From: an uncultured Bacteroidales bacterium
GTDB lineage: Bacteria; Bacteroidota; Bacteroidia; Bacteroidales; Paludibacteraceae
Assembly (NCBI GenBank): GCA_900319645.1
Contig: ONPG01000019.1
Location: 1-42,725, forward strand
Length of the DNA: 42,725 nucleotides
Direction of reading: 5' to 3'
Both the position numbers and the translations under genes were made by a program. Below the pieces are notes generated by a model. It was not told the DNA's origin. It did not search any database and was given only the letters and a program-made list of their open reading frames with translations. Position 1 is the stretch's first letter. Every line of letters begins with the position of its first letter. Below, in pieces: positions 2,630 through 37,908 of this stretch.

Positions 2630-3499
2630 TTAATGGTAATTTTGAGCATTTTCTACCGCTTTATGGGCAGACTGACGGGTTAAACGAGCTTGTTGGTGGG
2701 TCATTTTGCGGTTTTTATAGCAATTTCGGCGAACGTCTTTTCCCGTCAGAATTTCGTACCAAACAGACGCAGCCGTAAAACGCCCATAGACATAATTGAG
2801 ATGATAGCCGTCACGGCAAAGCGTGTCCCCAAGACGTGTGCTTCGAGCACGCTGAATGGCTTCTCCGCAGGGAATAACGATTAATTGACGATTGGGCGAC
2901 TTAGGATTTAACGATTGATTGGACAATTGTTTATTATTGGCGATTTGTTGGACGTAACGGGTGCAAGATTGAATAGAATCCCACATCTCCTGCTGGCTGC
3001 TGTGATAGCGCTCAAAAGCAGGATGCTTGGCATCTTGGCTATATGCCCATGTTTGCATCCAACAGAGTTGCGCTTGGGGCTGATAGGCACGAACGGTATC
3101 AATCAGCATGGAGAGCCAAGGCTCGAAAGAGGAACGGATACCGCTGTCGTGGCTTGCCTGCTGGAGGGAGATATAATCGTACTTGCCGTCACGGAGCGCC
3201 TGACGAAGCGTGACCGTGTCTTTGACGACACGACATTGCCGAACGGACGGCTTAGAATTTGACGATTTGCCGATTGAATCCACCGTACAACTGGTGCATA
3301 CACGATGGGAATAGGCGGCGGTATCCTTCATCAGGAAGCGTGCGTGCTGCTCCAAAGAACATCCGCCGTAGTAGAGATCGTGGACCTCCACTTTGACTCC
3401 CGCCGTGTAGCACAGCGGAACCAGTTCCTGCTCCACAGCATCCCAGGAAAAAGAGTTTCCTATACAAAGGACACGGATGAGTAATAAAACAGTTAACAT
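2630..3499 (-). CDS. DUF4886 / SGNH-hydrolase-like protein
   Basis: A 289-residue protein that begins MLTVLLLIRVLCIGNSFS. The GNSFS block (Ser16 likely nucleophile), YYGGCSLEQH (residues 43-51), YDYISLQQASHDSG (108-120) and DGYHLNYVYGRF (230-241, Asp/His) are the conserved blocks of DUF4886, a Bacteroidota esterase-like SGNH family of unknown substrate. Start 3499 was chosen because upstream in-frame sequence overlaps the polA end. The N-terminal hydrophobic stretch is short and runs straight into the first catalytic block, so export is doubtful. Residues 188-207 (NNKQLSNQSLNPKSPNRQLI) are encoded by a 7-bp-period array that looks inserted, and 77-88 may be a second insert. It closes the minus-strand run after polA. 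Confidence 0.8.
   Translation of the reverse strand: MLTVLLLIRVLCIGNSFSWDAVEQELVPLCYTAGVKVEVHDLYYGGCSLEQHARFLMKDTAAYSHRVCTSCTVDSIGKSSNSKPSVRQCRVVKDTVTLRQALRDGKYDYISLQQASHDSGIRSSFEPWLSMLIDTVRAYQPQAQLCWMQTWAYSQDAKHPAFERYHSSQQEMWDSIQSCTRYVQQIANNKQLSNQSLNPKSPNRQLIVIPCGEAIQRARSTRLGDTLCRDGYHLNYVYGRFTAASVWYEILTGKDVRRNCYKNRKMTHQQARLTRQSAHKAVENAQNYH
2884..2945. repeat. 7-bp-period array inside the DUF4886 gene
   Basis: Degenerate units on the plus strand such as TTGACGA, TTGGGCG, ATTTAAC, GATTGAT, TGGACAA follow each other with a 7-base spacing and are read in frame as the Asn/Ser/Gln/Pro-rich insert at residues ~186-206. Confidence 0.6.
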
Positions 3500-3607
3500 A
3501 ATTGTCAAAAAATATACTAATACTTCCGTAGCAGGCTCGATATGGTCTCGGTAAGGTCTCGAGTATTGTCCAGGATTACCAAACAATCAGGTGCTGCGGA
3601 TGAGGGG

Positions 3608-5983
3608 TTAGTGGGCTTCGAGCCAGTTGTTGCCGACACCACATTCGGCGATGAGAGGAACAGAGAGACTGACAACGTTCTGCATCTCGGAGACAACTAT
3701 TTCGCGTACGCGTTCGACTTGCGCCTCGGGCACGTTGAAGTTCAATTCGTCGTGCACCTGCATGATCATCTGAGCATTTTCGCATTTAAGCATTTTATCA
3801 TTTTCGCATTTAGACATTTCTGCTTTTAGCTCTTTGAGGCGGCGGTGGATGGAGACCATCGCCATTTTTATGATGTCTGCGGCGGTACCTTGTATGGGGG
3901 CGTTGACGGCGTTTCGCTCGGCAAATGAACGGACGGTAGCGTTGTGGGAGTTGATATCCGGGAGGTAGCGTTTGCGTCCGAAGAGTGTCTCAGCGTAGCC
4001 TCGCTGACGCGCGAGTTCTTTTTGGGACTCGATATATTCAATTACACGCGGGAAGGCGGCGAAGTAATCGTCGATGAGTTGTTTAGCTTCCGTGCGTGAA
4101 CAATCGAGTTGCTGCGCGAGCCCGAAGGCTGATATGCCGTAAATAATACCGAAATTGGCGGTCTTGGCTTGCCGACGCTGATCTTTGGTCACTTGGTCGA
4201 TAGGTATGCCGAAGATTTTCGCCGCGGTAGCAGCGTGGATGTCTTGTCCGTTTCGGAAAGCCGCAATGAGATGTTCGTCCTGGCTGAAATGCGCCATGAG
4301 GCGGAGTTCGATCTGACTATAGTCGGCACTTAGGAACTTGCAGCCGGGATCGGGTATTACCGCTTCGCGGATAAACCGTCCGCGTTCGGACCGGATAGGC
4401 AGGTTCTGGAGGTTCGGATTGCTGGAAGAAAGGCGTCCGGTAGCCGTCACGGTCTGGTTGTAGGTGGTGTGGATCTTGCCATCCAGCGGGCTGATGTAGC
4501 TGGGCAGGGTGGCGATATAGGTAGAAACGAGTTTCTTCAGTTCGCGGTAGTTGAGAATGAGCCCGACGACCTCGTGACGGTCGCGGATAGCGAGGAGGAT
4601 CTCCTCGGAAGTGGCGTACTGTCCTGTTTTGGATCTCTTAGCTTTGGAATCCAGTTTGAGTTTGTCGAAGAGGAGTTCGCCAACTTGGCGAGGACTATTG
4701 ACATTGAAGGTCTCCCCCGCCACCTGGTAGATGTGTTGTTCCAGCTCGTGCAGCTCCCCGGAGAGGGTAATCTCCGCTTCGTGCAGTTTGGCGACATCGA
4801 CGCGTACACCGGCTTCCTCCATTTCGCGCAAGACGGGTACGAGCGGCAGCTCGACGTTCTGATAGAGGTTCCAGAGGTTGGTATCCGCCTTGAGGGCATC
4901 CCAATCGGGCTCTTTGTGGGGATTGAAAGCCACCTCGGGATTGAGGAGATATTGACAGAGGCGGGCTTCGATGGAATCGTGAATTATTTTCTCATTTTCA
5001 CATTTTTCTATTTTCTCATTTTCATCTTCGGCAGAAGCGAAGAGGTCGAGTTGGTTGGGATCGGCGGGTTTGGCTTTCTGGGAAGCGGGTTTATCCGCCA
5101 AATCTGACGGATTAAGAGGAGAGGGGGCGAGTTTCTTGAGGAGGGTATTGAACTCCAGCTCCGAATAGAGTCTGGTCAGTTCTTCGGCGTTCGGCTCTTT
5201 GCGGAGGAGCTGCGTTTCGTCAAGCGAGATGGGCACGTCCGTACGAATAGTAGCCAAGAAACGCGAGAAGCGGATCTGTTCCTGCTGGCTCTCCACTTTC
5301 TGGCGCAAAGCACCTTTGATCCAGTCGGTGTGCTCGAGCATATTATCAATGGTACCGAACTGCTGCAGCAAAGCAACAGCGGTTTTCTCCCCCACTCCTT
5401 TGCAGCCTGGTATATTATCACTGGCGTCTCCCATTAGTCCGAGCAGGTCGATCACTTGTTCCTGGTTCTTCAAGCCGTATTTAGCGCAGACCTCTTGCGG
5501 TCCCATTATCTCAAACCCTCCTGTATGCCGCGGACGATACATGCGGATACGGTCGGATACCAACTGTCCGTAGTCTTTGTCCGGAGTAGCCATAAAGACA
5601 TCGAAATCAGCTTTCTCCGCCTGTTTAGCGAGCGTACCTATTACGTCGTCCGCCTCAAATCCGGGCACCTCCAGTTGGGCGATATTCATTGCCTGCAACA
5701 GTTGTTTGATCACGGGCACAGCGCGGCGTATATCCTCCGGCGTCTCTTCTCGCTGGGCTTTATATTGCTCGTACGCCTCATGGCGGAAAGTAGGTCCGTG
5801 CGGGTCAAACGCAACGGCTACGTGCGTCGGGTTGACCTTGCGCAACAAGTCATCCAACGTGATACAGAAGCCAAAGATGGCAGAAGTGTTTTCACCTTTG
5901 CTGTTCATGCGTGGCGTACGAAGAAACGCATAATACGCTCGGAAAATCATCGCGTATGCATCAACTAATAGTAATTTTCTCAT
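3608..5983 (-). CDS. polA: DNA polymerase I lacking most of the 3'-5' exonuclease domain
   Basis: 791 residues, against roughly 920-940 for usual Bacteroidales PolA. Residues 1-290 are the 5'-nuclease (MRKLLLVDAYAMIFRAYYAF, GFEADDVIGTLAKQ, TPDKDYGQLV, H3TH at GLMGDASDNIPGCKGVGEKTA). Residues 371-791 are the polymerase: motif A DYSQIELR (554-561), O-helix RRQAKTANFGIIYG (603-616), motif C VHDEL (743-747). Between them, where ~190 residues of 3'-5' exonuclease with a DxE motif are expected, only about 60-80 residues remain, without DxE; a short piece, SIEARLCQYLLNPE, resembles the end of that domain. Residues 320-334 and 722-738 are in-frame products of 7-bp-period arrays. I chose ATG 5983 because the family begins MRKLLLVDAYAM; that start itself lies inside such an array. 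It follows ung in the operon. Confidence 0.93.
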   Translation of the reverse strand: MRKLLLVDAYAMIFRAYYAFLRTPRMNSKGENTSAIFGFCITLDDLLRKVNPTHVAVAFDPHGPTFRHEAYEQYKAQREETPEDIRRAVPVIKQLLQAMNIAQLEVPGFEADDVIGTLAKQAEKADFDVFMATPDKDYGQLVSDRIRMYRPRHTGGFEIMGPQEVCAKYGLKNQEQVIDLLGLMGDASDNIPGCKGVGEKTAVALLQQFGTIDNMLEHTDWIKGALRQKVESQQEQIRFSRFLATIRTDVPISLDETQLLRKEPNAEELTRLYSELEFNTLLKKLAPSPLNPSDLADKPASQKAKPADPNQLDLFASAEDENEKIEKCENEKIIHDSIEARLCQYLLNPEVAFNPHKEPDWDALKADTNLWNLYQNVELPLVPVLREMEEAGVRVDVAKLHEAEITLSGELHELEQHIYQVAGETFNVNSPRQVGELLFDKLKLDSKAKRSKTGQYATSEEILLAIRDRHEVVGLILNYRELKKLVSTYIATLPSYISPLDGKIHTTYNQTVTATGRLSSSNPNLQNLPIRSERGRFIREAVIPDPGCKFLSADYSQIELRLMAHFSQDEHLIAAFRNGQDIHAATAAKIFGIPIDQVTKDQRRQAKTANFGIIYGISAFGLAQQLDCSRTEAKQLIDDYFAAFPRVIEYIESQKELARQRGYAETLFGRKRYLPDINSHNATVRSFAERNAVNAPIQGTAADIIKMAMVSIHRRLKELKAEMSKCENDKMLKCENAQMIMQVHDELNFNVPEAQVERVREIVVSEMQNVVSLSVPLIAECGVGNNWLEAH
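3769..3826. repeat. 7-bp-period array in polA, next to motif C
   Basis: Plus-strand units of the type GCATTTT, CGCATTT, AAGCATT, TTATCAT, TTTCGCA; in the polA frame they encode residues ~722-739 (SKCENDKMLKCENAQM), directly before IMQVHDEL. Most PolA proteins have no residues here. Confidence 0.75.
4984..5026. repeat. 7-bp-period array in polA at the lost exonuclease domain
   Basis: Plus-strand TATTTTC, TCATTTT, CACATTT, TTCTATT, TTCTCAT, TTTCATC units, encoding residues 320-334 (ENEKIEKCENEKI) in frame. The sequence family is the same as in the arrays at 3769-3826 and 5970-5999. Confidence 0.75.
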
Positions 5984-5999
5984 TTTCTTATTTTCGCAT
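5970..5999. repeat. 7-bp-period array between ung and polA
   Basis: Units AGTAATT, TTCTCAT, TTTCTTA, TTTTCGC, ATTTACC. On the minus strand the array reads GCGAAAATAAGAAAATGAG and contains the ATG start of polA. It links the ung stop to the polA start in 16 bases. Confidence 0.65.
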
Positions 6000-6662: not shown

Positions 6663-6664
6663 AG

Positions 6665-7768: not shown

Positions 7769-7797
7769 ATCATTCGTTTTGTACATAATCGTATTGT

Positions 7798-16367: not shown

Positions 16368-16402
16368 GTAATTATCAATTGTCAATTTTCAATTGTCAAT
16401 CT
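16368..16402. repeat. 7-bp-period array between DUF2795 and porP genes
   Basis: Units AATTATC, AATTGTC, AATTTTC, AATTGTC, AATCTTT on the plus strand fill nearly all of the gap between the two genes and end directly at the probable GTG start of porP. Confidence 0.75.
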
Positions 16403-17408: not shown

Positions 17409-17507
17409 GTCGTGATCTCGATATTTCGATATCTCGATATTTCGATATGTCGATATTTCGATATGTCGATATAACGTATTGTCAATTATCCATTATCAAC
17501 TATCCTT
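17409..17507. repeat. 7-bp-period arrays between methyltransferase and adenosyltransferase genes
   Basis: Two arrays back to back: about nine TCGATAT-type units (17416-17474), then ATTGTCA, ATTATCC, ATTATCA, ACTATCC units. The second enters the 3' end of the methyltransferase gene and supplies its stop codon (TAA, 17486-17488) and last residues. Confidence 0.85.
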
Positions 17508-19654: not shown

Positions 19655-19674
19655 CACCCGAAAACAGAAAACAG

Positions 19675-20094
19675 ATGATACGTTTTACGACTGACGACAT
19701 AGCCATGCCGGCATTGGAAGAACGCCGCGTGACGCGCTGGATCCGCGCCGTGGCAGCCCACTACGGTTTTGGTGTGGGCAACATCAACTATATCTTCTGC
19801 TCCGACGAGCGCGAGTTGGAGGTCAACAGGCAGTTCTTGGGCCACGACTACTACACCGACGTCATCACCTTCGACTACTCCACCGCCAACACCCTCAACG
19901 GCGACATCTTTATCTCGCTGGATACCGTGCGGTCGAACGCAGAGATGGTAGGCGCAAGTTTTGACGACGAGCTCAGACGCATCCTTATACACGGCGTGCT
20001 GCACCTCACCGGCCAAGGCGACAAGACGCCCGAGACCAAAACACAGATGACCGCCAAGGAGGAACACGCACTCGCGCTTTGGAACAAATCTTAA
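19675..20094 (+). CDS. ybeY: Endoribonuclease YbeY
   Basis: 139 residues. YbeY is a zinc-dependent endoribonuclease for 16S rRNA 3'-end maturation and ribosome quality control. The metal site reads HGVLHLTGQGDK (His106, His110, then Asp116 instead of a third His), the form seen in Bacteroidota. Upstream blocks IFCSDERELEVNRQFLGHDYYTDVITFDY and NGDIFISLDTVR fit the family. ATG 19675 lies 20 bases after a strong promoter; the in-frame codon at 19624 would be inside it. The end of the gene carries a 16-base sequence repeated upstream of the pectate lyase gene. Confidence 0.95.
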   Translation: MIRFTTDDIAMPALEERRVTRWIRAVAAHYGFGVGNINYIFCSDERELEVNRQFLGHDYYTDVITFDYSTANTLNGDIFISLDTVRSNAEMVGASFDDELRRILIHGVLHLTGQGDKTPETKTQMTAKEEHALALWNKS

Positions 20095-20238: not shown

Positions 20239-21843
20239 ATGAAACACTTCACCACCCTTTTAGCCGCATCGCTATTCATTCTTTCGCCGTTAAAGGCCGT
20301 CAATTACTGTGCTTCATCTTCGTGGGGCAATGCCGGCACTTCGGTCACGGGCGGCGGCAACGCCACGCCTACCCTTGTCACCAACGAGAGCGAACTGACC
20401 GCTGCGTTGGGCAAAGCCGGGAGCGTGATCATCATCACGCAGGACATCACCGTGACGAACCACATCAGCACGGACAAGAACAACCTGACCATTATGGCAT
20501 TGCCGGGCAAACGGCTTATCTCCGAGCAGCAGAACAAAACCAACTCCGGCATCCTGTATCTCAAGGGAAACAACCTGCTGCTTCGCAACCTGACTTTTGA
20601 AGGTCCGGGCGCCTACGACTGCGACGGATGGGACAACCTCTGTCTGGACAGAGCCACGAACGTGTGGGTGGACCACTGCGATTTCCAGGACGGTTGCGAC
20701 GGCAATTTCGATATCAAAGGCAAGTCGGACAACGTGACCATCAGTTGGTGCCGTTTCCGCTATCTCAAAGAGCCGAAAGCCGGCGGATCGGGCGGATCGA
20801 ACGACCACCGTTTCTCCAACCTCGTCGGTTCGGGTTCGTCCGATAAGCCCGAAGACGGCACCTATAACCTCACCTTCGCCTACTGCTGGTGGGACGAGGG
20901 ATGCAAGCAGCGAATGACCCGCTGCCGCAACGCCGAACAGCATTTCCTCAACTGCTACTGGAACAGCTCCGTAGCCGACTACTATATCGGTCCCGAGAAC
21001 GCCGTTTGCTATTTCGAGGGCTGCACTTTTGCCGGCAAAGCCAACTCAGCGAAGGGCATCTGGAGCGAGTTCAACGGTTCGGACAATGCCTGCCGGTTCG
21101 TCAACTGCACCGGCAACCTGCCGTCCGACCAAGGCACGGTGGAGGCTCCCACCTATTCGTATGACCACCTGACTGCAGCCACTGCCAAGAACTACGTGAC
21201 CAACAGCAGCTGCGGAGCGGGTGCCACACTGACTGTCACCACCAACGCGGAAGCAAGCAGCACATGCGACACTCCGGAGGAAGGTGGCGGCGAAGGGGCT
21301 GCGAGCGGCGAGTGCTGCATCGATCTCAGCTTAGGCGAAACACCTACTACGAGCAATGGAGGAATACCCTCGAATTTCAACCGGATAACAGTCACTGCCA
21401 ACCTGGCAAAAGGCACTTGGGACCAAGGCTATCTCAACATGGGCGGCAATGCAGACTATATCACCTTCGACGTCTCGGCGTACAACAGCACAATCCTCTC
21501 TGTCTCGTTTGACGTCACCATCCCAGGGTGGACGACCGAAAAGAACACGATCGCCTACCATTGGAACAGCGACACAAACACCAAATACAATATCTCCAGT
21601 CCTAACAAAGAGATTGTCGAACTGACCGCACCCTCCAACGCCAAGTCATTCACTATCCAACGTTCAGCAGGCACCAGCACGCGTATCTCGCAGCTATGTC
21701 TGACCCTCCAGACAGACAAGACCACCGGCGTAGAGGAGGTACGAAGGGACGATGTACAATGTACAAAGGTCATTGAGAACGGAGTTCTCTATTTGATGTA
21801 CAACGGGACAATGTACAATGTACAAGGCCAAAGAGTAATGTGA
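20239..21843 (+). CDS. Secreted pectate lyase, polysaccharide lyase family 1
   Basis: 534 residues. Signal peptide to about residue 20 (FILSPLKA), then a right-handed beta-helix of family PL1: IIITQDITVTNHI, LLLRNLTFEG, TNVWVDHCDFQDGCDGNFDIKGKSDNVTISWCRF (calcium-binding Asp region) and KQRMTRCRNAEQHFLNCYW (catalytic Arg region). It cleaves polygalacturonate by beta-elimination. Residues ~355-500 form a second beta-rich domain with unknown role (perhaps carbohydrate binding). The C-terminal ~35 residues (KVIENGVLYLMYNGTMYNVQ, then GQRVM) resemble the short C-terminal signals of Bacteroidales exported proteins, which would fit type IX secretion; this last is inference. The tail is rich in TGTACAA units. 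Confidence 0.9.
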   Translation: MKHFTTLLAASLFILSPLKAVNYCASSSWGNAGTSVTGGGNATPTLVTNESELTAALGKAGSVIIITQDITVTNHISTDKNNLTIMALPGKRLISEQQNKTNSGILYLKGNNLLLRNLTFEGPGAYDCDGWDNLCLDRATNVWVDHCDFQDGCDGNFDIKGKSDNVTISWCRFRYLKEPKAGGSGGSNDHRFSNLVGSGSSDKPEDGTYNLTFAYCWWDEGCKQRMTRCRNAEQHFLNCYWNSSVADYYIGPENAVCYFEGCTFAGKANSAKGIWSEFNGSDNACRFVNCTGNLPSDQGTVEAPTYSYDHLTAATAKNYVTNSSCGAGATLTVTTNAEASSTCDTPEEGGGEGAASGECCIDLSLGETPTTSNGGIPSNFNRITVTANLAKGTWDQGYLNMGGNADYITFDVSAYNSTILSVSFDVTIPGWTTEKNTIAYHWNSDTNTKYNISSPNKEIVELTAPSNAKSFTIQRSAGTSTRISQLCLTLQTDKTTGVEEVRRDDVQCTKVIENGVLYLMYNGTMYNVQGQRVM

Positions 21844-22429: not shown

Positions 22430-23614
22430 ATGACACCTGTTTTCAAAGACTATCTTACTCAGAATGACATTAACGGCTATCTGACTGCCCTTTACCAAGA
22501 AGCGGACAAGGGCGATGCCGGTTCGCTGCGTATCTTGCTCTATTTCTCCGTCATGGTTTCCGAGGTGGAGGATGCGATGGACTACGTCGATAAACTCATG
22601 ACTATTGACGATGACTATGTCTTTGCTGTATGGCCGTATCTGTCCGCTGCTATTAACGAACTGAACGAGGAACTCGGTACCTGTGATGACGACGAGAAGT
22701 ATAAATACACCCTCGGCGCCAAGTTCAAGACTGCCCTCAACACCGGCGACATGGAGTATGAGAAAGAGCATCTCGGCTTCGAGTCCCCCTTCCGGCTCTT
22801 TGGTGACAAGATCATTATCCTCCAGCGTGCCTACCTCCATCATGTAGGCCAGCAGATCTATCCCATGATAGACGACAGCGTGGAGACCAAGCCCTGCGCG
22901 CCGAAGGAGAAGATTGACTACTGGTACAGCCTGTACCGCCGTAGTGACTGCTCGGCAAATCAGGAGACTATTTATAACGACGCCAAGCCTTATGCCGAAC
23001 AGGGTGACCCCGATGCGATGCTTGTAGTAGGCTACCTGCTCGCCCACGGCATAGAGACCAAATACGACAGCCCGCGCGTTATTATTCTTCGCGCCAACCC
23101 GGATTTCGCGTTGCCTTTTCTCCGCCGCGCTGCCGATGCTGGTCTTCCCGGAGCATGCTGGGAGACGGCTGCTGCTCTGTTCCGCAAAAAAGAGACTGAG
23201 AGCGAAGCACTGGGCTGGCTATACGTGGAGAAAGGGGCGGAAATGGACGATAAGGACTGCCTGCGTTGCCTGTTCGGGCGCTACGAAGGCAAGGACGATG
23301 CAAAAGCGTTTGGCTATCTGGTGCGCCTTGCCGACCAAAACAACACCCACGAATACAAACTCACACTCGCCTATTGGTACGAGACAGGACGCGGCTGCGA
23401 GAAGGACGAGAAGAAAGCCTTTGAACTCGCCGAATATGTCTGGAAGAACTCTTCCGCCAGCCCGTACGACAGCAGTCAGGAGGACTCCGTCGGAATGCTC
23501 TGCCGCTATCTGCGCGAAGGTATCGGTTGCACCCCTGACCTTAAGCGCGCAGAAAAAATCGCCCGTTGGTACCAAGACGACGAGGACCGGATGTTGGAAA
23601 TGCTAACCAGGTAA
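22430..23614 (+). CDS. Sel1-like/TPR-like repeat protein
   Basis: 394 residues, cytosolic, acidic. The second half has helical repeats of the Sel1 type: AEQGDPDAMLVVGYLLAHGIE, ALPFLRRAADAGLPGACWETA, YKLTLAYWYETGRGCEKDEKKAFELAEYVW and GMLCRYLREGIGCTPDLKRAEKIARWY. Such solenoids bind proteins. The first ~190 residues are not recognised. The stop codon TAA (23612-23614) is followed at once by TTGAGAA repeats. Confidence 0.75.
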   Translation: MTPVFKDYLTQNDINGYLTALYQEADKGDAGSLRILLYFSVMVSEVEDAMDYVDKLMTIDDDYVFAVWPYLSAAINELNEELGTCDDDEKYKYTLGAKFKTALNTGDMEYEKEHLGFESPFRLFGDKIIILQRAYLHHVGQQIYPMIDDSVETKPCAPKEKIDYWYSLYRRSDCSANQETIYNDAKPYAEQGDPDAMLVVGYLLAHGIETKYDSPRVIILRANPDFALPFLRRAADAGLPGACWETAAALFRKKETESEALGWLYVEKGAEMDDKDCLRCLFGRYEGKDDAKAFGYLVRLADQNNTHEYKLTLAYWYETGRGCEKDEKKAFELAEYVWKNSSASPYDSSQEDSVGMLCRYLREGIGCTPDLKRAEKIARWYQDDEDRMLEMLTR

Positions 23615-23630
23615 TTGAGAATTGAGAATT

Positions 23631-30029: not shown

Positions 30030-30066
30030 ACCATTTACGATTTAGTCATTTACGATTTACGATTTA
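30030..30066. repeat. 7-bp-period array between sdhC and sdhA
   Basis: CATTTACGATTTAG-type units: ATTTACG, ATTTAGTC, ATTTACG, ATTTACG, ATTTACA. The sdhC stop (TAA, 30064-30066) lies in the array. Same unit as at 27719-27752 and 37849-37908. Confidence 0.85.
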
Positions 30067-30753
30067 CAGCATCGCGATGCCCATTCCCAGATAATACAGC
30101 ACTACAACGGTGAACGGCAGTACAACGAGTGTAGCCATAACCGTGCTGATCACCTCTACGCGTTTCTGCCATTTGAGGTTGTTCAAACCCATAGAGGTCA
30201 TAGCCGAGCCCACACCGTGATTGAGGTGCAGCCACAGCACTACGAACCACAACAGATAGAGCACGCAATACACCTGACCCCATACCGGAGTGGTAAACAG
30301 TGCTTTCACATAAGCTGCTCCGTTCTGCGGATCAAACGCACCCGTCTCGATGCCCGACAGTTCTGCAAACTGCATCTTGAACCAGAAATTGTACAGGTGC
30401 AAGCACAGGAAACCGAGGATCACAAAGCCCAGCACGAGCATGTTCTCCGACTCCCAGGTCACGCCCTGTTTCTTGTCGGTTACCGCATAGCGGTCGTTTC
30501 CACGGGCAGCACGGTTTTGAGCTGTCAGATACAGACCGTAGCAGAAATGTACCAACACCAGAAACGCAATTCCGAGCGATCCGATGACGGCGTACCAGTT
30601 AGCGCCGAGGAAACGGCAAATGGCATTGTAAGCCTCTTCGCTGAACACCAGCGCAAGGTTCATGCAACCGTGAAACAGCAGGAAGAACACCAGCGCTGCT
30701 CCACTCAGAGCCATAACGAACTTACGGCCGATAGATGAATCTTTTAACCACAT
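30064..30753 (-). CDS. sdhC: Succinate dehydrogenase/fumarate reductase cytochrome b subunit
   Basis: 229 residues, five membrane helices, of the B-type single-subunit cytochrome b (FrdC/SdhC of Bacteroides, Wolinella and Bacillus type). It begins MWLKDSSIGRKFVMALSGAAL and has the membrane His residues FFLLFHGCMNL, VLVHFCYGLYL, CLHLYNFWF and VVLWLHLNHGVGSAM, candidates for the two heme ligands pairs. It anchors SdhA/SdhB and exchanges electrons with menaquinone. First gene of the operon, with a ~175-base leader after a strong promoter. Confidence 0.95.
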   Translation of the reverse strand: MWLKDSSIGRKFVMALSGAALVFFLLFHGCMNLALVFSEEAYNAICRFLGANWYAVIGSLGIAFLVLVHFCYGLYLTAQNRAARGNDRYAVTDKKQGVTWESENMLVLGFVILGFLCLHLYNFWFKMQFAELSGIETGAFDPQNGAAYVKALFTTPVWGQVYCVLYLLWFVVLWLHLNHGVGSAMTSMGLNNLKWQKRVEVISTVMATLVVLPFTVVVLYYLGMGIAML

Positions 30754-31339: not shown

Positions 31340-31498
31340 ATGAAACGTACATTTCAACCTTCGCAGCGCAAGCGCCGCAACAAACACGGTTTCCTCGAGA
31401 GAATGGCTACCGCTAACGGTCGCCGCGTATTGGCTGCCCGCCGTGCTAAAGGTCGCAAGAAACTGACCGTAGCCGACGAGGGACGCCACAAGTTTTAA
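31340..31498 (+). CDS. rpmH: Ribosomal protein bL34
   Basis: 52 residues, [20 protein letters not shown] followed by [20 protein letters not shown]: the invariant bL34 sequence, a basic protein of the large subunit close to the exit tunnel region. ATG 31340 is chosen by family; the in-frame codon at 31205 lies before the promoter. In many bacteria rpmH is near dnaA or rnpA, which are not seen here. Its TAA stop is followed immediately by TTGACAA repeats, then a terminator. Confidence 0.97.
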
Positions 31499-31529
31499 TT
31501 GACAATTGACTATCGACAATTGACAAAAT

Positions 31530-31647: not shown

Positions 31648-31983
31648 ATGGAATCAACACGTCAACACAAGATCGCCCGTCTCATACAGAAAGACATGAG
31701 CGATATTCTTTTACGCTACGCGCGCACGCTGCATAGCACGCTCATATCCGTGAGCGAGGTACGCGTGTCGCCCGACCTCAGTATTGCACACATCTACGTC
31801 TCGATCTTCCCGCAGGACCGCGTCAAAGAGACGATGGCACTCATCGAAGAGAACACCCACAAGCTCCGTGGCGAACTCGGCACGCTCGAGCGTCATCAGC
31901 TGCGTGTCATCCCCGAGATCGCTTTCCACCTCGACGAGACCCTCGACCGGATGGAGCGCATAGACGAACTGCTCAAAAAATAA
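31648..31983 (+). CDS. rbfA: Ribosome-binding factor A
   Basis: 111 residues. RQHKIARLIQKDMSDILLRY, TLISVSEVRVSPDLSIAHIYVSIF and the ending PEIAFHLDETLDRMERIDELL are the RbfA signature (KH-like fold). It binds the 30S precursor and helps 16S rRNA 5'-end maturation, also in cold. It precedes the LolC/E-like gene, a common Bacteroidota pair. A TTAACAG/TTAACGT array starts at its stop codon (TAA 31981-31983). Confidence 0.95.
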   Translation: MESTRQHKIARLIQKDMSDILLRYARTLHSTLISVSEVRVSPDLSIAHIYVSIFPQDRVKETMALIEENTHKLRGELGTLERHQLRVIPEIAFHLDETLDRMERIDELLKK

Positions 31984-32043
31984 CAGCTTAACAATTTAAC
32001 AGCTTAACAATTTAACAGCTTAACGTCTTAACGTCTTAACGTC
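31981..32043. repeat. 7-bp-period array between rbfA and the permease gene
   Basis: TTAACAG/CTTAACA/ATTTAAC units followed by three ACGTCTT units (CTTAACGTCTTAACGTCTTA). The array begins with the rbfA stop codon and ends 18 bases before the GTG start of the next gene. Confidence 0.9.
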
Positions 32044-32061: not shown

Positions 32062-33270
32062 GTGCGAAGCACCGAATCCTTCATAGCCTGGCGATACCTC
32101 TTCTCCAAGAAAGGGCACAACGCCATTAACATCGTCTCTGGCGTCTCCGCCGTGGCGGTGGCGGTGGTTACGGCGGCTATGATCTGCGTGCTCTCGGTGA
32201 TGAACGGTTTCGGCGCACTCGTCGAGCACATGTTCTCCGAGTTTGATGCCGAACTGCTGGTTCTGCCTGCCGAAGGCACTACGCTCCGCACGGACGCACC
32301 GGAGATAGCCGAACTCTATGCTCTGGACGGTATCGAAGCCGTCTCCGCCCAACTGGAGCAGACCGCACTCGTGCGATACAAAGACCATCAGACGCCGGCG
32401 CGTGTACTCGGAGTGGACAGCCTCTTCGCGCGCACAGCACACATCGACTCGATCATCACGGACGGCTACTACTCCGTCTATGACGGCGCCTTCGAACGGG
32501 CGGTGCTCGGACGCGGACTCGCCGCACAGATAGGTATCAACGCCCATTTCACAGGGGCGCTTCATCTCTACGCGCCCAACCGCACGGAACGCGTCAACCT
32601 CCTCCGCCCGGACAAGTCGCTCGTACACGAACACGCGTTCATTGCCGGTACGTTTGCCGTCAACCAGATGGAATACGACGACCAGCTCATGCTCGTCTCG
32701 CTCACTCTTGCCCAACGCCTCTTCGGCTACGACGACCACACCGTCTCCGCCCTGCGCATACAAACCAACGCCAAACACCTCAAACAGCGCATCGCGCAAA
32801 CCATCGGTCCCGAATACCGGGTCCTTGACCGCTACGAGCAACAATCGGATTTCTACCGCATCCTGCGTATCGAGAAACTGCTGACCTTCCTGCTCATGGT
32901 CTTTATCCTACTCATCGCAGGATTCAACCTCATCGGTTCGCTCTCGATGCTTATTCTGGACAAACGCGACGACATCCGTATCCTCTCCCATCTCGGAGCG
33001 GACGAGTCCCTCATCCGCCGCATTTTCCGGACGGAAGGCTGGCTGATCTCGTCACTCGGCGCACTCGCCGGACTTGTGCTCGGCACGCTCCTCTGTCTCG
33101 GTCAGCAGCACTTCGGATGGCTCAAACTGGGCAACGGAAGTGATTATGTGATCTCCGCTTATCCGGTGGTAGTACAGCCTGCCGACATCCTCATCGTCGC
33201 ACTCATCGTCCTCGTCCTCGGGTTCCTCACTGCCTGGTATCCCACAAGGAAACTGAAAATTGAAAATTGA
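32062..33270 (+). CDS. LolC/LolE-like ABC transporter permease
   Basis: 402 residues, FtsX-like permease with an N-terminal membrane helix (HNAINIVSGVSAVAVAVVTA), a large periplasmic MacB-like domain (~50-265) and three C-terminal helices (LTFLLMVFILLIAGFNLIGS, WLISSLGALAGLVLGTLLCL, PADILIVALIVLVLGFLTAW). FIAWRYLFSKKGHNAINIVS is the classical start of the lipoprotein-releasing LolC/E group, which extracts lipoproteins from the inner membrane; the ATPase LolD is not in this window. The start is GTG 32062, as the frame has a stop at 32029 and no ATG. The end LKIEN and its TGA stop are made by AAAATTG repeats. Confidence 0.9.
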   Translation: MRSTESFIAWRYLFSKKGHNAINIVSGVSAVAVAVVTAAMICVLSVMNGFGALVEHMFSEFDAELLVLPAEGTTLRTDAPEIAELYALDGIEAVSAQLEQTALVRYKDHQTPARVLGVDSLFARTAHIDSIITDGYYSVYDGAFERAVLGRGLAAQIGINAHFTGALHLYAPNRTERVNLLRPDKSLVHEHAFIAGTFAVNQMEYDDQLMLVSLTLAQRLFGYDDHTVSALRIQTNAKHLKQRIAQTIGPEYRVLDRYEQQSDFYRILRIEKLLTFLLMVFILLIAGFNLIGSLSMLILDKRDDIRILSHLGADESLIRRIFRTEGWLISSLGALAGLVLGTLLCLGQQHFGWLKLGNGSDYVISAYPVVVQPADILIVALIVLVLGFLTAWYPTRKLKIEN

Positions 33271-33300
33271 AAATTGAAAGGAGTTATTAAATTGAAAATT
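33250..33300. repeat. AAAATTG array at the end of the permease gene
   Basis: Four tandem GAAAATT units (33254-33279), then GAGTTATTAAATT and two more. It codes for the last residues and the stop of the permease and reaches to six bases before the lipoprotein gene. Confidence 0.9.
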
Positions 33301-33305
33301 GAAAG

Positions 33306-33938
33306 ATGAAAGCCAAAGCCAACGCCAAAGCCAACGCCGCCAACGCATTTTTGTCCATTGTCCATCGTCCATTGTCCTTTGTCCATTGTACATTGCTCCT
33401 TTGTACATTCCTTTGCGGTTGCCGTCGCTATGACCCGGTTCCTTACCGCGGCATGCCGAAGGAGTTCAATCTCGGCTACCAGGAGATCTACGGACATTGC
33501 TACGACTCTATCCCCTATTCCGTCGTCGCGCTCGATCTCTATTCCGACAGCCTCACGCTGGACAAAAACCACCGGATGCAAGGCACCGGCTACAACCTAT
33601 ACCTCTCGGATATCTTCGTCTCCGACAGTCTCCTCACGCCCGGTGAATACCACTCCCTCCCTCTCGCCAATCACCAAACACCCGTCGCCGTTACCCCGAA
33701 CACTTTCCTTCCCGGCAGAGACTGGGACGGCACACCCACCGGCATCTATCTGCTCTACGTGGAAGAGGGCAAACTGCAAACTATCCAACTGCTTGACAGT
33801 GGTTCGTTCGTCGTACGCGACACTACCAACGGACTTCTGGACCTCCAGTTCACGCTATACTACCGGAACGCGTACGGCTCCAAAGCCACTTATCGCCCGC
33901 ATTTCCAAGGAGAACTCATTCCATGGCGAAAGAAATAA
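33306..33938 (+). CDS. Lipoprotein of unknown function with a repeat-derived signal peptide
   Basis: 210 residues. N-terminus MKAKANAKANAANAFLSIVH then RPLSFVHCTLLLCTFLCGC with a lipobox (LCGC, Cys39), so an outer- or inner-membrane lipoprotein. The mature part (YDSIPYSVVALDLYSDSLTL, GTGYNLYLSDIFVSDSLLTPGEY) resembles small Bacteroidota lipoproteins of unknown role. The basic n-region is encoded by GCCAAC/GCCAAA hexamers and the hydrophobic region by TGTCCAT-type heptamers (33350-33410). The stop overlaps the xerD start by 16 bases, so the two genes are coupled. Confidence 0.75.
   Translation: MKAKANAKANAANAFLSIVHRPLSFVHCTLLLCTFLCGCRRYDPVPYRGMPKEFNLGYQEIYGHCYDSIPYSVVALDLYSDSLTLDKNHRMQGTGYNLYLSDIFVSDSLLTPGEYHSLPLANHQTPVAVTPNTFLPGRDWDGTPTGIYLLYVEEGKLQTIQLLDSGSFVVRDTTNGLLDLQFTLYYRNAYGSKATYRPHFQGELIPWRKK
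33350..33410. repeat. 7-bp-period array encoding the signal peptide
   Basis: TGTCCAT, TGTCCAT, CGTCCAT, TGTCCTT, TGTCCAT, TGTACAT, TGCTCCT, TTGTACAT units in tandem; they encode FLSIVHRPLSFVHCTLLLCT, the h-region of the lipoprotein signal. Confidence 0.9.
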
Positions 33939-34828
33939 CCGAAAATATCTACCGCGAGTACCACTCGTGGCTGCGGTTGGAGCGAGGCTATTCGCCCAAT
34001 ACGGTAGAAGGCTACGAGCAGGATTTGCAACGCTTGCGCAACTACGGCGAGGAGCACGGAGTAGATATCGTACACACCTCTTTCGACGAGCTCCAGGAGT
34101 TTGTCTTCCAGGAGTTCAAGACCATCACTTCCGCGGCTACGCAAGCACGCACCCTGGCGGGTATTCACTCGTGGTATAGGTTTCTGCTCTACAAGGATTA
34201 TATCGACCAGGACCCTTCCGAACTGCTGGAGGGGCCCAAGAAAGACAAACATCTGCCCACCGTCCTCTCGCTGGACGAAGTCAACCGGCTCATGGCGGCT
34301 ATCGACCTCTCCTCCAACGAAGGTCATCGCAACCGCGCGATGCTGGAGATGCTCTACGGAAGCGGGCTACGCGTGAGCGAACTGACCAACCTCCGCCTCA
34401 GCCAGATCTACCTCGACGAACACTATATGCTTATCCTGGGCAAAGGTAGCAAACAACGTCTTGTGCCGCTCTCGCCCGTCGCCGAAGAGTGGTTTGGCTA
34501 CTGGATACAGGATCGTAACCGGTGGTCCGTCAAACCCGAGGCACAGGACTACGCATTCGTCAACCGCTACGGACGGCCGCTCACACGCGCGATGGTCTTC
34601 ACCATCATTAGGCGGCTGTGCGCCGAAGCGGGTATCACCAAGACCATTTCGCCCCACACTCTCCGACACTCGTTTGCCACCCATCTGCTCCAGAACGGAG
34701 CCGACCTGCGGGTGATCCAGCAACTGCTCGGACACGAAGACCTCGCCACCACCGAGATTTACACCCACGTGGACGTACAGGACCTCAGAAAAGCTATCCT
34801 GCAATACCACCCCGCAAATAAAAATTGA
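33923..34828 (+). CDS. xerD: Tyrosine recombinase XerD
   Basis: 301 residues. Catalytic residues are in place: Arg150 (GSGLRVSEL), Lys174 (GKGSKQR), His245 and Arg248 (HTLRHSFATHLL), His271 (LGHED), Tyr280 (TEIYTHV). The N-terminal SAM-like DNA-binding domain starts ENIYREYHSWLRLERGYSPN. It is the chromosome-dimer-resolution type by length and sequence, not an integrase of a mobile element, although the surroundings are repeat-rich. It overlaps the lipoprotein gene. The end PANKN and the TGA stop lie in a TTGACAA array. Confidence 0.93.
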   Translation: MAKEITENIYREYHSWLRLERGYSPNTVEGYEQDLQRLRNYGEEHGVDIVHTSFDELQEFVFQEFKTITSAATQARTLAGIHSWYRFLLYKDYIDQDPSELLEGPKKDKHLPTVLSLDEVNRLMAAIDLSSNEGHRNRAMLEMLYGSGLRVSELTNLRLSQIYLDEHYMLILGKGSKQRLVPLSPVAEEWFGYWIQDRNRWSVKPEAQDYAFVNRYGRPLTRAMVFTIIRRLCAEAGITKTISPHTLRHSFATHLLQNGADLRVIQQLLGHEDLATTEIYTHVDVQDLRKAILQYHPANKN

Positions 34829-34915
34829 CAATTGACAATTGAAAGGAAACATATTGGTAACTGGTTGAGAGGACTCCTGCTCCTTTCAGTTTTCAGTTTT
34901 CACCTCTCAGTTCTC
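34821..34915. repeat. 7-bp-period arrays at the start of the DUF5686 gene
   Basis: First AAATTGACAATTGACAATTG (34822-34841), which contains the xerD stop and the TTG start of the next gene; then TTTCAGT, TTTCAGT, TTTCACC, TCTCAGT, TCTCCAG (34884-34919), which encode LLLSVFSFHLSVLQA of the signal peptide. Confidence 0.85.
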
Positions 34916-37438
34916 CAGGCGGTGGAGACCATCATCGTGGGCGAGGTGGTCAACGACGCGACGGGAGAACCCGTTCCGAACGTCAACATCCGTTTCCGAG
35001 GCACCAAAATCGGCACTACCTCTGACGAGACGGGCGCGTACGCACTGCGCGTGGACATGCACGCCAAATCCGTATTGGTATTCTCTGCCGTCGGCTACCA
35101 CTCCCAGCGTTTTGAGATCGAACCGGGCACGACAGCAGGTCTCGAAGTGGCGCTCCATGAGCGTACGGCGGTGCTGACCGAAGTGGTGGTCACGCCTTCC
35201 GAGAACCCTGCGCTGGCTATCCTCCGTCAGGTGCGCGAACGACGCGCGGAGAACGACCGTGTTCTGCGACCCGACCTCAGGTCTACTGTCCGACGCGAAC
35301 AGACACTCTATATCTCCCAGATCCAGAAACGCCACCTTCGCCGTGCGCTCTGGCGAAGCCTGCAGGCAGGATTGATAGCCCAAGACGACAGCACGTATAT
35401 TATGCCGCTCTACCGCGAGACGCAGACTTTCATGCTTGCCGGGCAGGAGATGATACCCGCCAACGACCAGCGTTCGCAGGCGGTTGTGCTTACCGCTACC
35501 GACTACTCGTCGCTCCTCAACCTCTCCGGCAACCTGGATTTCTATCAATCCAGCGTCCCGCTGATGGGGCACGCTTTCCTCTCGCCCCTCGCTCCTTCCG
35601 GCAACCTCTACTACCGCTATTATCTGGACGAAGAAGAGACCACCGATCCCCAATCACCTGTCACCAATCAGGTCCTGATCCGTTTCCGGACAAGGAATCC
35701 GTTCTACGCCACCTTCAACGGCGAGATGCTCATCGACACGACGACGTTTGCGCTCCGGGCTATCCGTGCCTACGTACCGCCCGAGGTGGCGGTCAACTAC
35801 GTCAACAATATCCACGTCTCGCAGACCCTCGCGCCGGACAACACCCTCGCCGAAGAATATATCTCCGTCCTGCTCGATTTCGCGGTCAAGACCGAACAGA
35901 CCGCTACGGTCTTCCCCACTGTGCTCCTGACTAACCGCCTGAGCAATCCCCAATCAACTCTCAACTCTCAACTGTCAACTCCCAACTCTCAACTCTCAAC
36001 TGTCAACTCTCAACTGTCAACTATCAACTCTCCCGGGGGAGCCGACTCACTTGCTTTCGCGGCGCTGGACAGCCTGCCTATAATACGTACCGCCAAGTGG
36101 TTTGCTACGATAGCCACCACCGGCTATATACCCACCGGCACACCCGTGGATATCGGTCATATTGAGGAAATTCTGCAAGTCAACCGCTACGAAGGCGTAC
36201 ACGTGGGCTTGCCCTTCCGAACCAACGAGCGGTTCTCCCAAGTGGTCTCGCTGGAAGCGGCGGTCGGTTACGGGTTCCGCGACCGACGTCCGAAAGGTCT
36301 CGGGCGTGTGTCCGTCAACCTGCCCACGCTTCGCAAACAGACCCTCCAAATGGAGTACCGCGACCATTACGTGTGGTCGGAAGTCGATGATTTCAGCCGT
36401 CTCATGCGCGAGAACTCGATCGGCTACGGCAATTTCGATTTCACGGCTTACGCCTTCGAAGCCTTGCATCGCGACACGCTCTGCCGCAGTACGTTCATGC
36501 GTCAGCGTCAGGGACAGATCCACTGGTTTGCCGACTGGGGCGAAGGTCACTCCACACGCCATGGCTATCCTGTCAGCCTCGAGACACACGCGTACATCCG
36601 TTTCGGCTGGCAGAACGACCTGCCCCAACTACCCATCACCCATCAGCAATCATCAATCACCAATCACCCATCCCCCGTCATTTCCTACCAATCCCTGAGT
36701 CTGATTGCCCGTCTCAGTTGGGGAGAGCGCAAGTACGACGGCTTTTTCTCCCGCCGTTATGCCTATTCCCCGCGTTACCCGGTGCTCTACCTCGGGCTGG
36801 AAACCGGTCACTGGGCCTCCACGGGCAATCAGCAATCAACAACCGGCAATCACCCATCACCCGTCAGCAATCCCCAATCCCCCGAAGGAGGTCTCTATGC
36901 CCACCTGCGTGTGATGCTCACCCAGAACGCTCAGTTAGGTATGGGCGGCACGCTCGCCTATACGATGCAGGCAGGAGCCGTTTTCGGCAAAGTGCCGTAT
37001 TTCCTTCTTTGGCAGGCGAACGCCAACCAGGGATATGCCTACGACCCCCATCGTTTCACGCTGCTGCACGGCGGAGAGTTGCTGGCGGACAAATACCTCG
37101 CCCTGCACACCGAATGGAACGGACACGGTATCCTCTTCAATCTGATTCCGGGTATCCGCTGGCTCCACCTGCGTGAGCTCGTCGAAGCCAAACTCGCGTA
37201 CGGCTATCTCTCCAATAACCCATCACCCATCACCACTCACCCATCACCCATCACCCATCACCCATCCTCCGGCGAGGGCTTACTGTACGCCGAAGTGGGT
37301 GTAGGTATCGGCAATATCCTCCGCGTCTGCGATCTCTATTCCGTATGGTCGGTAGTGCCGCTATCCTCCACCCTTTCCGCCCAACAAAAAGGAAGTGCCA
37401 AATGGGCACTCCGATTCCGTATTCACTTGGGGCTCTGA
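34832..37438 (+). CDS. DUF5686/CarboxypepD-regulatory-like outer membrane protein
   Basis: 868 residues. A signal peptide (GLLLLSVFSFHLSVLQA) is followed by a carboxypeptidase-regulatory-like beta-sandwich (VGEVVNDATGEPVPNVNIRF ... LTEVVVTPSENPALAILRQV, ~35-125) and a large DUF5686 part that should form an outer-membrane beta-barrel (alternating strands to the final WALRFRIHLGL). Function in the family is unknown; a TonB-box-like role is not evident. No ATG is near the start: TTG 34832 lies inside a repeat array, and a second TTG (codon for Leu13) is possible. Four clear repeat-coded inserts and one weak one interrupt the barrel region: residues ~272-280, 371-401, 601-623, 664-685 and 795-813, all rich in Asn, Ser, Thr, Pro, Gln or His. 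Confidence 0.85.
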   Translation: MTIERKHIGNWLRGLLLLSVFSFHLSVLQAVETIIVGEVVNDATGEPVPNVNIRFRGTKIGTTSDETGAYALRVDMHAKSVLVFSAVGYHSQRFEIEPGTTAGLEVALHERTAVLTEVVVTPSENPALAILRQVRERRAENDRVLRPDLRSTVRREQTLYISQIQKRHLRRALWRSLQAGLIAQDDSTYIMPLYRETQTFMLAGQEMIPANDQRSQAVVLTATDYSSLLNLSGNLDFYQSSVPLMGHAFLSPLAPSGNLYYRYYLDEEETTDPQSPVTNQVLIRFRTRNPFYATFNGEMLIDTTTFALRAIRAYVPPEVAVNYVNNIHVSQTLAPDNTLAEEYISVLLDFAVKTEQTATVFPTVLLTNRLSNPQSTLNSQLSTPNSQLSTVNSQLSTINSPGGADSLAFAALDSLPIIRTAKWFATIATTGYIPTGTPVDIGHIEEILQVNRYEGVHVGLPFRTNERFSQVVSLEAAVGYGFRDRRPKGLGRVSVNLPTLRKQTLQMEYRDHYVWSEVDDFSRLMRENSIGYGNFDFTAYAFEALHRDTLCRSTFMRQRQGQIHWFADWGEGHSTRHGYPVSLETHAYIRFGWQNDLPQLPITHQQSSITNHPSPVISYQSLSLIARLSWGERKYDGFFSRRYAYSPRYPVLYLGLETGHWASTGNQQSTTGNHPSPVSNPQSPEGGLYAHLRVMLTQNAQLGMGGTLAYTMQAGAVFGKVPYFLLWQANANQGYAYDPHRFTLLHGGELLADKYLALHTEWNGHGILFNLIPGIRWLHLRELVEAKLAYGYLSNNPSPITTHPSPITHHPSSGEGLLYAEVGVGIGNILRVCDLYSVWSVVPLSSTLSAQQKGSAKWALRFRIHLGL
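35942..36032. repeat. AACTCTC/AACTGTC array in the DUF5686 gene
   Basis: About twelve tandem heptamers (AACTCTC, AACTGTC, AACTCCC, AACTATC), read in frame as QLSTLNSQLSTPNSQLST-type heptapeptides (residues 371-401). A 7-bp unit read in triplets repeats every 7 codons, which is what the protein shows. Confidence 0.95.
36632..36700. repeat. CCATCAC/CAATCAT array in the DUF5686 gene
   Basis: Units CCATCAC, CCATCAG, CAATCAT, CAATCAC, CAATCAC, CCATCCC. Encodes ITHQQSSITNHPSPV (residues ~604-620). Confidence 0.9.
36823..36885. repeat. CAATCAG/CCATCAC array in the DUF5686 gene
   Basis: Units GCAATCA, GCAATCA, CAACCGG, CAATCAC, CCATCAC, CCGTCAG, CAATCCC. Encodes GNQQSTTGNHPSPVSNPQSP. Confidence 0.9.
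37214..37270. repeat. CCATCAC array in the DUF5686 gene
   Basis: About eight units of CCATCAC/CCACTCA type; encodes NNPSPITTHPSPITHHPSS (residues ~796-814). A pure stretch CCCATCACCCATCACCCATC is near 37248. Confidence 0.92.
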
Positions 37439-37442
37439 CGGC

Positions 37443-37701
<259 letters not shown>

Positions 37702-37721
37702 GTTGTTTTTCAGCAGGTAGT

Positions 37722-37908
37722 ATTGGACTATTATTGGGATATTATTGGGAGATTATTGGGTGATTATTGGGTGATTAGGTAAACAGCAGGATAACCTCAG
37801 CGTAGTAATAGCTCTGTTTCGGGACACTTGAACCGCATCTAAAACCTCGTAAATCCTCAATAAATCGTACCTCGTAAATCGTCAAATCGTAAATCGTCAA
37901 ATCGTAAA
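37722..37908. repeat. 11-bp and 7-bp arrays in the gap after DUF5686
   Basis: 37722-37775 holds four ATTATTGGGTG/ATTATTGGGAT units (11-bp period). 37849-37908 holds CGTAAAT/CGTCAAAT units like those in the sdh operon. The sequence between them (37776-37848) has no feature I can support. Confidence 0.8.

What the first reader, a model, noticed from the sequence alone, without database searches (positions are those of the whole stretch)
2884..37908. A genome-wide-looking family of degenerate 7-bp-period arrays
At about twenty places the window has short tandem arrays whose units differ between sites (ACGATTT, TTGACAA, AACTCTC, CCATCAC, CTTTCTA, TCGATAT, AAAATTG, TTAACGT, TGTCCAT, GCATTTT) but whose period is always 7. 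The common element is the period, not the sequence, so they are unlike an insertion element, a CRISPR or ordinary microsatellites, which spread one unit. They are common in gaps and also occur inside genes in frame. Constant period with free sequence suggests a copying mechanism with a fixed 7-base step. Similar heptapeptide runs (QLSTLNS-type) do occur in proteins of other Bacteroidales; I do not know of a mechanism for them.
Basis: partly seen in the sequence, partly recalled or inferred. Interest (0 to 1): 0.82.

Follow-up and report, generated by a model that had tools for sequence, protein, structure and literature searches.

The report
Seven-base repeats filling spare DNA
This uncultured gut bacterium, probably from the rumen, fills gene gaps, some signal peptides and protein loops with short tandem arrays that mostly repeat every seven bases; the kind of repeat is known, but here the repeated word often differs between species at the same place, which could help explain why seven is favoured in bacteria.

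Summary
Period 7 dominates short tandem repeats in the window (16 exact runs against 0.1 expected), in 443 kb of its genome (98 against 2.0) and in 38 loci of relatives (79; next 21 and 14, multiples of 7, then 11 with 28). An order-level outgroup sample lacks it (3 in 168 kb). Three of the ten units named are period 8.

The sequence is not free: units form a cloud, by my reading around TGANANN, with a dialect per genome. Same-unit arrays share no flanks. At orthologous sites in close species, arrays often keep place and period while unit type shifts; 12 of 26 length changes are multiples of 7. Best reading: STRR-type heptamer repeats that grow and homogenise in place where sequence is unconstrained. 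They abut stop codons (31 of 80 against 14.5 by chance) and a few seem to encode signal-peptide cores. No copying machine is shown.

Abundant heptamer repeats in bacteria are already in print; species dialects at shared slots were not found in my searches. New variant of a known kind.

The parts
16370..16400 (-). heptamer array AATTGAC/AATTGAA/AATTGAT, at the 3' end of a minus-strand gene call
19660..19675 (+). heptamer array GAAAACA, 2.3 copies
21808..21825 (+). heptamer array ACAATGT near the end of a pectate-lyase-like gene
   Evidence: Pfam
23613..23630 (+). heptamer array AATTGAG at a gene junction, overlapping the upstream stop codon
24243..24274 (+). degenerate heptamer array ATAATTC directly after a stop codon
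27732..27753 (-). heptamer array TAAATCG (ACGATTT of the finding), at the 3' end of a fumarate reductase flavoprotein-like gene
   Evidence: Pfam
30048..30067 (-). heptamer array TAAATCG, at the 3' end of a reductase membrane-subunit-like gene
   Evidence: Pfam
31497..31526 (+). heptamer array AATTGAC overlapping the stop of the short reading frame 31340-31498 (reads as ribosomal protein L34, recalled)
33250..33279 (+). heptamer array TGAAAAT covering the stop of the FtsX/MacB-type permease gene; 7 compact relatives have one copy (ATGAAAATC) here
   Evidence: Pfam
33289..33312 (+). heptamer array TGAAAAT running into the start codon region of the next reading frame
33351..33395 (+). heptamer array TGTCCAT in frame, apparent hydrophobic core of a lipoprotein-like signal peptide (FLSIVHRPLSFVHCTLLLCTFLCGC)
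   Evidence: judged by eye
34823..34842 (+). heptamer array AATTGAC; its TGA is the stop codon of the XerD-like gene
   Evidence: Pfam
34884..34902 (+). heptamer array TTTCAGT in frame, apparent signal-peptide core of the DUF5686 protein; units at this place in relatives include TTTCACT, TTTCAAT, CTTTGTA, GGCTCTT
   Evidence: judged by eye
35954..36032 (+). 11-copy heptamer array TCAACTC in frame (STLNSQL-type heptapeptide) inside the DUF5686 gene; the relatives printed have other fillers here
   Evidence: Pfam
36631..36680 (+). heptamer array ACCCATC in frame in the same gene
37212..37266 (+). heptamer array ACCCATC in frame in the same gene
37486..37515 (+). heptamer array CTTTCTA inside an 89-bp tandem unit (37451-37693)
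37575..37604 (+). heptamer array CTTTCTA, second 89-bp unit
37664..37700 (+). heptamer array CTTTCGA/CTTTCTA, third 89-bp unit
37861..37909 (+). mixed 7/8-base array TAAATCG/TCAAATCG
17415..17472 (.). period-8 array TCGATATT, named as a heptamer in the finding
31981..32043 (.). period-8/16 array TAACAGCT, CTTAACGT, named as a heptamer in the finding
3773..3830 (.). degenerate period-8 array AGCATTTT, named as a heptamer in the finding

Best explanation
These are short tandem heptamer repeats of the kind called STRR or long simple sequence repeats, at high density in a genus whose named relatives are Paludibacteraceae or Bacteroidales, several from the rumen. Shown: a period-7 excess; a restricted cloud of units with a dialect per sampled genome; arrays at the same slots in related species, often with different units; an excess of length changes in steps of 7; boundaries between unit types that shift within arrays; placement where sequence looks unconstrained (gaps, apparent signal-peptide cores, variable loops) and against stop codons. 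Inferred: arrays grow from a local copy by slippage or unequal recombination, the 7-base step being favoured during growth; a changed unit spreads through its array, so place and period are inherited while the word drifts; exchange limited to the repeats themselves, by short homology, gives each genome its dialect. Strand choice is set by coding: the purine-rich strand usually carries a stop codon and is tolerated, or useful, at gene ends, while the pyrimidine-rich strand is stop-free in 97 of 108 units and can be read through inside genes. No specific function or dedicated enzyme is needed.
For: Period excess. Dialects: within-genome pairs at distance 1 or less 17-38%, between genomes 0-10% (six genomes); in the 12.9-kb relatives' loci the same contrast is weaker, 16.0% against 10.2%. 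Descent at a site: 20.8% and 25.0% at two orthologous sites against 10.2% for other site, other genome. G081 against G082, 28 sites with arrays in both: 18 same unit, 7 one base apart, 3 different; G081 against G083, 27 such sites: 12, 7, 8; G082 against G083, 15 such sites: 7, 4, 4. Steps of 7: 12 of 26 length changes are exact multiples of 7, about 3.7 expected at 1 in 7 (the three pairs are not independent). Unit-type boundary shifts at equal length: sites 1 and 17. A possible seed: at window 33250 the unit TGAAAAT stands once (ATGAAAATC) in 7 of the 28 relatives printed, which have no array. No shared flanks between same-unit arrays: longest shared word 5.28 against 5.06 for different units; 3 of 215 and 2 of 600 pairs share 10 bases or more, none 14. 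Placement: 73 of 108 in gaps; 31 of 80 gap or gap-edge arrays touch a stop against 14.5 (sd 2.6) at random, 7 touch a start against 12.0 (sd 2.6). Orientation in co-directional gaps 40 purine-sense to 17 (p 0.003); gene ends 10 of 10 purine-sense (p 0.002); gene interiors 15 pyrimidine-sense to 6 (p 0.08). Stops on the purine strand only in 70 of 108 units.
Against: At one site G083 differs from G081 and G082 by one substitution in each of four copies without a length change (site 51), more than simple slippage predicts. The same unit at many loci without shared flanks is not explained by purely local growth. With arrays masked, two-copy duplications in own-genome gaps show no special excess at 7 (run 7-8: 8 against 3.2 expected at 7; 10 against 3.4 at 8; 16 against 3.5 at 9; 16 against 3.0 at 10; 14 against 3.8 at 11). 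Indel lengths between close species show no clear peak at 7 (19, 17 and 23 events of 7, 8 and 9 bases in the closer group, 41, 30 and 25 in the other), and clean tandem events were few (14 of 463 and 14 of 753). 14 of 26 length changes at arrays are not multiples of 7. At many orthologous sites an array faces no array or another filler (11 of 51, 31 of 61 and 34 of 50 sites in the three pairs), so loss, gain or whole-filler replacement is common.
Confidence: 0.6

Rival explanations
1. A dispersal process, mobile or template-driven, writes heptamer arrays into many sites of one genome; the dialect is its template.
For: Genome-specific dialects; one unit family, up to 3 mismatches, at 145 overlapping places of the own genome with 0 in the reversed control; an all-copies unit change at one site (site 51); AAAGTTG faces AAAGGTG at two orthologous sites and AATTGAT faces AAAGTTG/AAAGTTT at two (sites 51, 62, 56, 58).
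Against: No shared flanks. Unit changes are not coordinated genome-wide: G083 keeps AAAGTTG at site 30 and the mixed array at site 16, and a third AATTGAT-type site faces TTATGAT (site 64). No candidate enzyme was sought.
Confidence: 0.15
2. The arrays are selected elements: all-frame translation stops or spacers at gene ends.
For: Excess at stop codons (31 of 80 against 14.5), TGA in 13 of 23 array-borne stops against 79 of 301 overall; orientation bias 40 to 17.
Against: Frequent loss and replacement at orthologous slots; 10 of 23 array-borne stops are TAA; the orientation bias could be survivorship, because the stop-bearing strand cannot lie inside a gene.
Confidence: 0.12
3. Fast turnover reflects exchange of old filler alleles between co-resident species by homologous recombination in the flanks.
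For: Two filler alleles at one site split close species in a way that crosses their closeness (L078 and L079 against L080 and L104, although L079 and L080 are the closest pair); L081 and L088 share a nearly identical gap.
Against: Explains reassortment, not the origin of arrays or the 7-base period.
Confidence: 0.1
4. Assembly or binning artefact.
For: The record titles seen name uncultured or metagenome-assembled genomes.
Against: The same arrays at the same place, some in the same phase, in separately assembled species; arrays are short (86 of 108 have 2-4 copies), shorter than a usual read.
Confidence: 0.02

Closest known systems
Heptanucleotide long simple sequence repeats (LSSR) of bacteria, Mrazek et al. 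2007, as described in the introduction of PMC4679880 and in PMC4692102
   Different: Here units are degenerate, form a dialect per genome and differ at shared slots; the original paper was not seen (not held)
TAACTGA direct repeats of marine Beggiatoaceae, Cyanobacteria and some Bacteroidetes (MacGregor 2015, PMC4679880; abstract and four sections seen)
   Same: Short heptamer arrays; TAACTGA read as TGATAAC fits the TGANAAY core; indels mostly in 7-base increments between two close Cyanothece strains
   Different: There one exact unit, mostly just upstream of start codons; here many units, at stop codons, starts not favoured
Cyanobacterial STRR sequences (recalled; the introduction of PMC4692102 mentions three tandem heptanucleotides of Calothrix)
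   Same: Several different heptamer families in one genome
   Different: Units and distribution not compared here
GGGNATC quadruplex-forming heptamers of Xanthomonas and Nostoc (Rehm 2015, PMC4692102; abstract, introduction and discussion seen)
   Same: Heptamer arrays mostly in non-coding DNA between co-directional genes, some near stop codons, variable in length and sequence between close species
   Different: Not that G-rich unit: it is absent from the own-genome list

Membership tests
Heptamer LSSR / STRR-type repeats (general kind) | head-to-tail heptamer arrays, many per genome, mostly outside genes | tested here: met
   108 arrays in 443 kb, 73 in gaps by my own gene calls
Heptamer LSSR / STRR-type repeats (general kind) | 7 is the commonest unit length | tested here: met
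Heptamer LSSR / STRR-type repeats (general kind) | copy number varies in whole units between close relatives | tested here: met
   12 of 26 changes exact multiples of 7, 14 not; between species, not strains
TAACTGA repeats (PMC4679880) | unit TAACTGA as the favoured sequence | tested here: not met
   AACTGAT, its canonical form, is absent from the 39 own unit classes (443 kb); TGATAAC arrays occur in other genomes of the phylum
TAACTGA repeats (PMC4679880) | majority directly upstream of start codons | tested here: not met
   7 of 80 gap arrays touch a start, 12.0 expected; gene starts come from my own gene caller
GGGNATC quadruplex heptamers (PMC4692102) | G-rich unit GGGNATC | tested here: not met
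   not among the 39 own unit classes
Phase-variable contingency loci | copy number switches reading frame or expression in a population | not testable with these tools
   no reads or strains at hand
Insertion sequence or other mobile element | copies share sequence beyond the repeat | tested here: not met
   no flank similarity between same-unit arrays beyond chance (32 bases each side)
CRISPR | repeats separated by unique spacers | tested here: not met
   arrays are head to tail

The most novel reading that the evidence does not exclude
A dedicated activity with a 7-nucleotide step writes and rewrites heptamers in unconstrained DNA across the genome; when its preferred word changes, arrays change word while keeping place and period, which would explain dialects and the all-copies change seen at an orthologous slot.
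Probability: 0.06. Interest if true: 0.92.

Novelty: new variant of a known kind. Interest (0 to 1): 0.55.

Why it matters
Why heptamers dominate long simple repeats in bacteria has been open since it was noticed; the printed guess is the length of DNA that the polymerase touches (as told in PMC4679880 and PMC4692102). This genus offers dozens of species with comparable arrays that keep period and lose sequence, so the step, the homogenisation and the seeding can be measured apart. It also shows repeat DNA apparently taken over as signal-peptide cores, loops and stop codons, replaced from species to species while the flanking genes stay alike.

Tried and rejected
Mobile-element spread: rejected for lack of flank similarity. 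Free units: rejected. Assembly artefact: rejected. Coordinated genome-wide unit replacement between G081/G082 and G083: looked for. Pattern places, grouped by me into loci, show a dialect shift (purely GG-type to purely TT-type loci: G083 16 to 10 with 4 mixed, G081 1 to 11 with 4 mixed, G082 3 to 12), but orthologous sites do not change together; not supported. The reversed control contains the TT form itself and is no control. (TCAAYTN pattern) matched 22 of 41 genomes, but its reversed control also matched 16 of 41 by my count, so I rest nothing on it. Indel spectrum between close species: no clear peak at 7 and few clean tandem events. The script failed half-way; its second half was rerun, changed. 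One search's length differences carry a one-base offset; one search gives exact ones. One search listed 94 sites; one search merged near-duplicates to 90. Literature: no printed description of these repeats in Bacteroidales or Paludibacteraceae was found. Searches returned none, 10 and 42 only PMC4679880; of 11, 37, 41 and 62 I read only the listings. The library lacks most subscription papers, and I did not read the cited originals.
Full report
Observation. TRF and an exact self-match scan confirm a strong excess of period 7 in the window: 16 runs of at least 9 matching bases, 0.1 expected; the next periods are 21 (9) and 14 (6), multiples of 7, and no other period from 2 to 24 exceeds 5. In 442,725 bases of the same genome the figure is 98 against 2.0 expected; the next periods are 11 (39), 21 (38) and 14 (34). 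A mismatch-tolerant scan finds 108 arrays, 2 in one Markov shuffle.

Host and range. Loci around its XerD-like gene in other genomes come from records titled Paludibacteraceae, Bacteroidales or Bacteroidia, several from rumen, reticulum or omasum by their titles. In 38 of the 39 such loci (one Lentisphaeria locus left out), 467,670 bases, period 7 leads with 79 runs, followed by 21 (42), 14 (34) and 11 (28); 29 of 38 have at least one period-7 run. Order-level outgroups (14 genomes, 168,069 bases, some stretches very short) have 3; samples of two genus members, G008 (40 kb) and G067 (20 kb), have none, and G018 (40 kb) has one. A pattern for one unit family, TGANAAY in three copies and a bit, matches in 39 of 296 genomes of the phylum including our own; our genome has 89 overlapping matches and 0 for the reversed control. 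The control also hits 17 other genomes by my count of the rows, so part of this is plain repeat richness. A related pattern in 41 relatives matched 22, but its reversed control matched 16.

The sequence is not free. The 98 exact runs fall into 39 unit classes, AAAACTG alone 18. Of array pairs in the genome 16.9% differ by at most one base in the best rotation and strand, against 3.9% when letters are shuffled within units and 2.7% for random intergenic heptamers. Within-genome pairs are closer than between-genome pairs in all six genomes compared; in the relatives' loci the contrast is smaller, 16.0% against 10.2%. Many units can be written as TGANANN on the purine-rich strand: my reading of the lists, not a fitted model.

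Same slots, other words. In the gap after the XerD-like gene, 15 of 35 rows (our own included) show a period-7 array by a strict test, with units AATTGAC, AAGGTGA, AGTTGAG, CTTTGTA, GGCTCTT and others; two genomes appear twice. In our genome, and by eye in L072, L081, L088 and L098, the stop codon of the gene lies in the array. The apparent signal peptide of the next gene is itself written in heptamers, TTTCAGT here, TTTCACT in L101, TTTCAAT in L081, L088, L106 and L109, in the same phase by eye. A stretch inside the DUF5686 gene (Pfam), filled here by 11 copies of TCAACTC, holds other fillers in the relatives printed: some with 8- or 9-base steps or hairpin-like units, some without a clear repeat, and close relatives share theirs. 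At the permease-lipoprotein junction, 5 of 28 relatives show arrays; 7 of the others (L071, L078, L079, L080, L085, L104, L108) carry one copy of the unit TGAAAAT there.

Close species. Between G081 and G082 (92.3% identity over aligned blocks) and G083 (about 87%), 90 array sites were kept, 50 placed in all three, 12 in two, 28 in one only. G081 against G082: of 51 sites placed in both, 12 have an array in neither, 28 in both (18 same unit, 7 one base apart, 3 different), 11 in one. G081 against G083: of 61, 3 neither, 27 both (12, 7, 8), 31 in one. G082 against G083: of 50, 1 neither, 15 both (7, 4, 4), 34 in one. Where the unit is the same or one base apart, 26 of 55 comparisons differ in length, 12 of them by exact multiples of 7 (not independent, three species). 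Two arrays show a moved boundary or order of unit types at equal length (sites 1 and 17). One array differs in all four copies at once (site 51). Arrays also alternate with a quite different filler, a C-rich hairpin, at the same slot (sites 19, 28, 38, 46, 49, 57). Over all indels between these and five further syntenic contigs there is no clear peak at 7.

Placement. 73 of 108 arrays lie in gaps by my codon-usage gene calls; starts are uncertain, and some gap arrays (such as 33351 and 34884) are probably in-frame signal-peptide DNA that the caller left out. Of 80 gap or gap-edge arrays, 31 touch a stop codon against 14.5 at random, and 7 touch a start against 12.0. 23 of 301 stops lie in an array, 13 of them TGA against 79 of 301 overall. 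In co-directional gaps the purine strand is sense in 40 of 57, at gene ends in 10 of 10, inside genes in 6 of 21 (the last is not significant). Arrays form the core of apparent signal peptides at window 33351 and at own contig C20 9300, 39746 and 190608, 4 of the 7 rows listed, and at window 34884; by eye, without a signal-peptide predictor.

Mechanism. Same-unit arrays share no flanking sequence beyond chance, so no element carries them. Steps of 7, boundary shifts and site-wise kinship favour growth and homogenisation in place; dialects require in addition either exchange limited to the repeats or a sequence preference. In gaps with arrays masked, short two-copy duplications show no special excess at 7, which places the preference in growth or spread; the counts are small. 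I therefore file this as a heptamer LSSR/STRR-type repeat system with unusual turnover, not as a new copying machine.

Literature seen. PMC4679880: abstract, introduction and the sections on distribution in Cyanobacteria and Bacteroidetes, on similar sequences and on roles. PMC4692102: abstract, introduction, discussion. Both report that heptamers were found over-represented in 2007 and the guess that 7 bases is the stretch touched by the polymerase. The 2007 paper was not held. Cyanobacterial STRR details are recalled.

Noticed in passing
window 37470-37489 and the two repeats after it; L046, L075, L082, L094, L106: Small hairpin-like filler units around GAA or GCA loops (such as CAGGCGAAGCCGGTCT and CAGTCCGCAGGACGGTCT) whose stems seem to change in matching pairs, dispersed in gaps and in-frame loops of relatives.
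   Followed up: no
sites 19, 28, 38, 46, 49, 57 (G081, G082, G083): A C-rich hairpin filler (CCTACCCC..CCCTCCCTAAAAGGAGGGGAA type) stands at the same slots where a close species has a heptamer array: whole fillers seem interchangeable.
   Followed up: partly
own genome sample; window 37721-37777, 20136-20174: Period 11 is the second commonest repeat step (39 exact runs); 28 of 33 tolerant-scan arrays lie in gaps.
   Followed up: no
window 37451-37693: 89-base unit in 2.7 copies that itself contains heptamer arrays and a hairpin word.
   Followed up: no
L079, L080, L078, L104 near 9087-9098: Two filler alleles of one in-gene stretch are distributed across four close species in a way that crosses their closeness, suggesting exchange of short segments.
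   Followed up: partly
own genome gaps: After masking arrays, short two-copy duplications are most in excess at steps 9 to 11 rather than at 7.
   Followed up: no
window 3608-6214: The window carries a DNA polymerase I-like gene (Pfam DNA_pol_A); no link to the repeats was tested.
   Followed up: no
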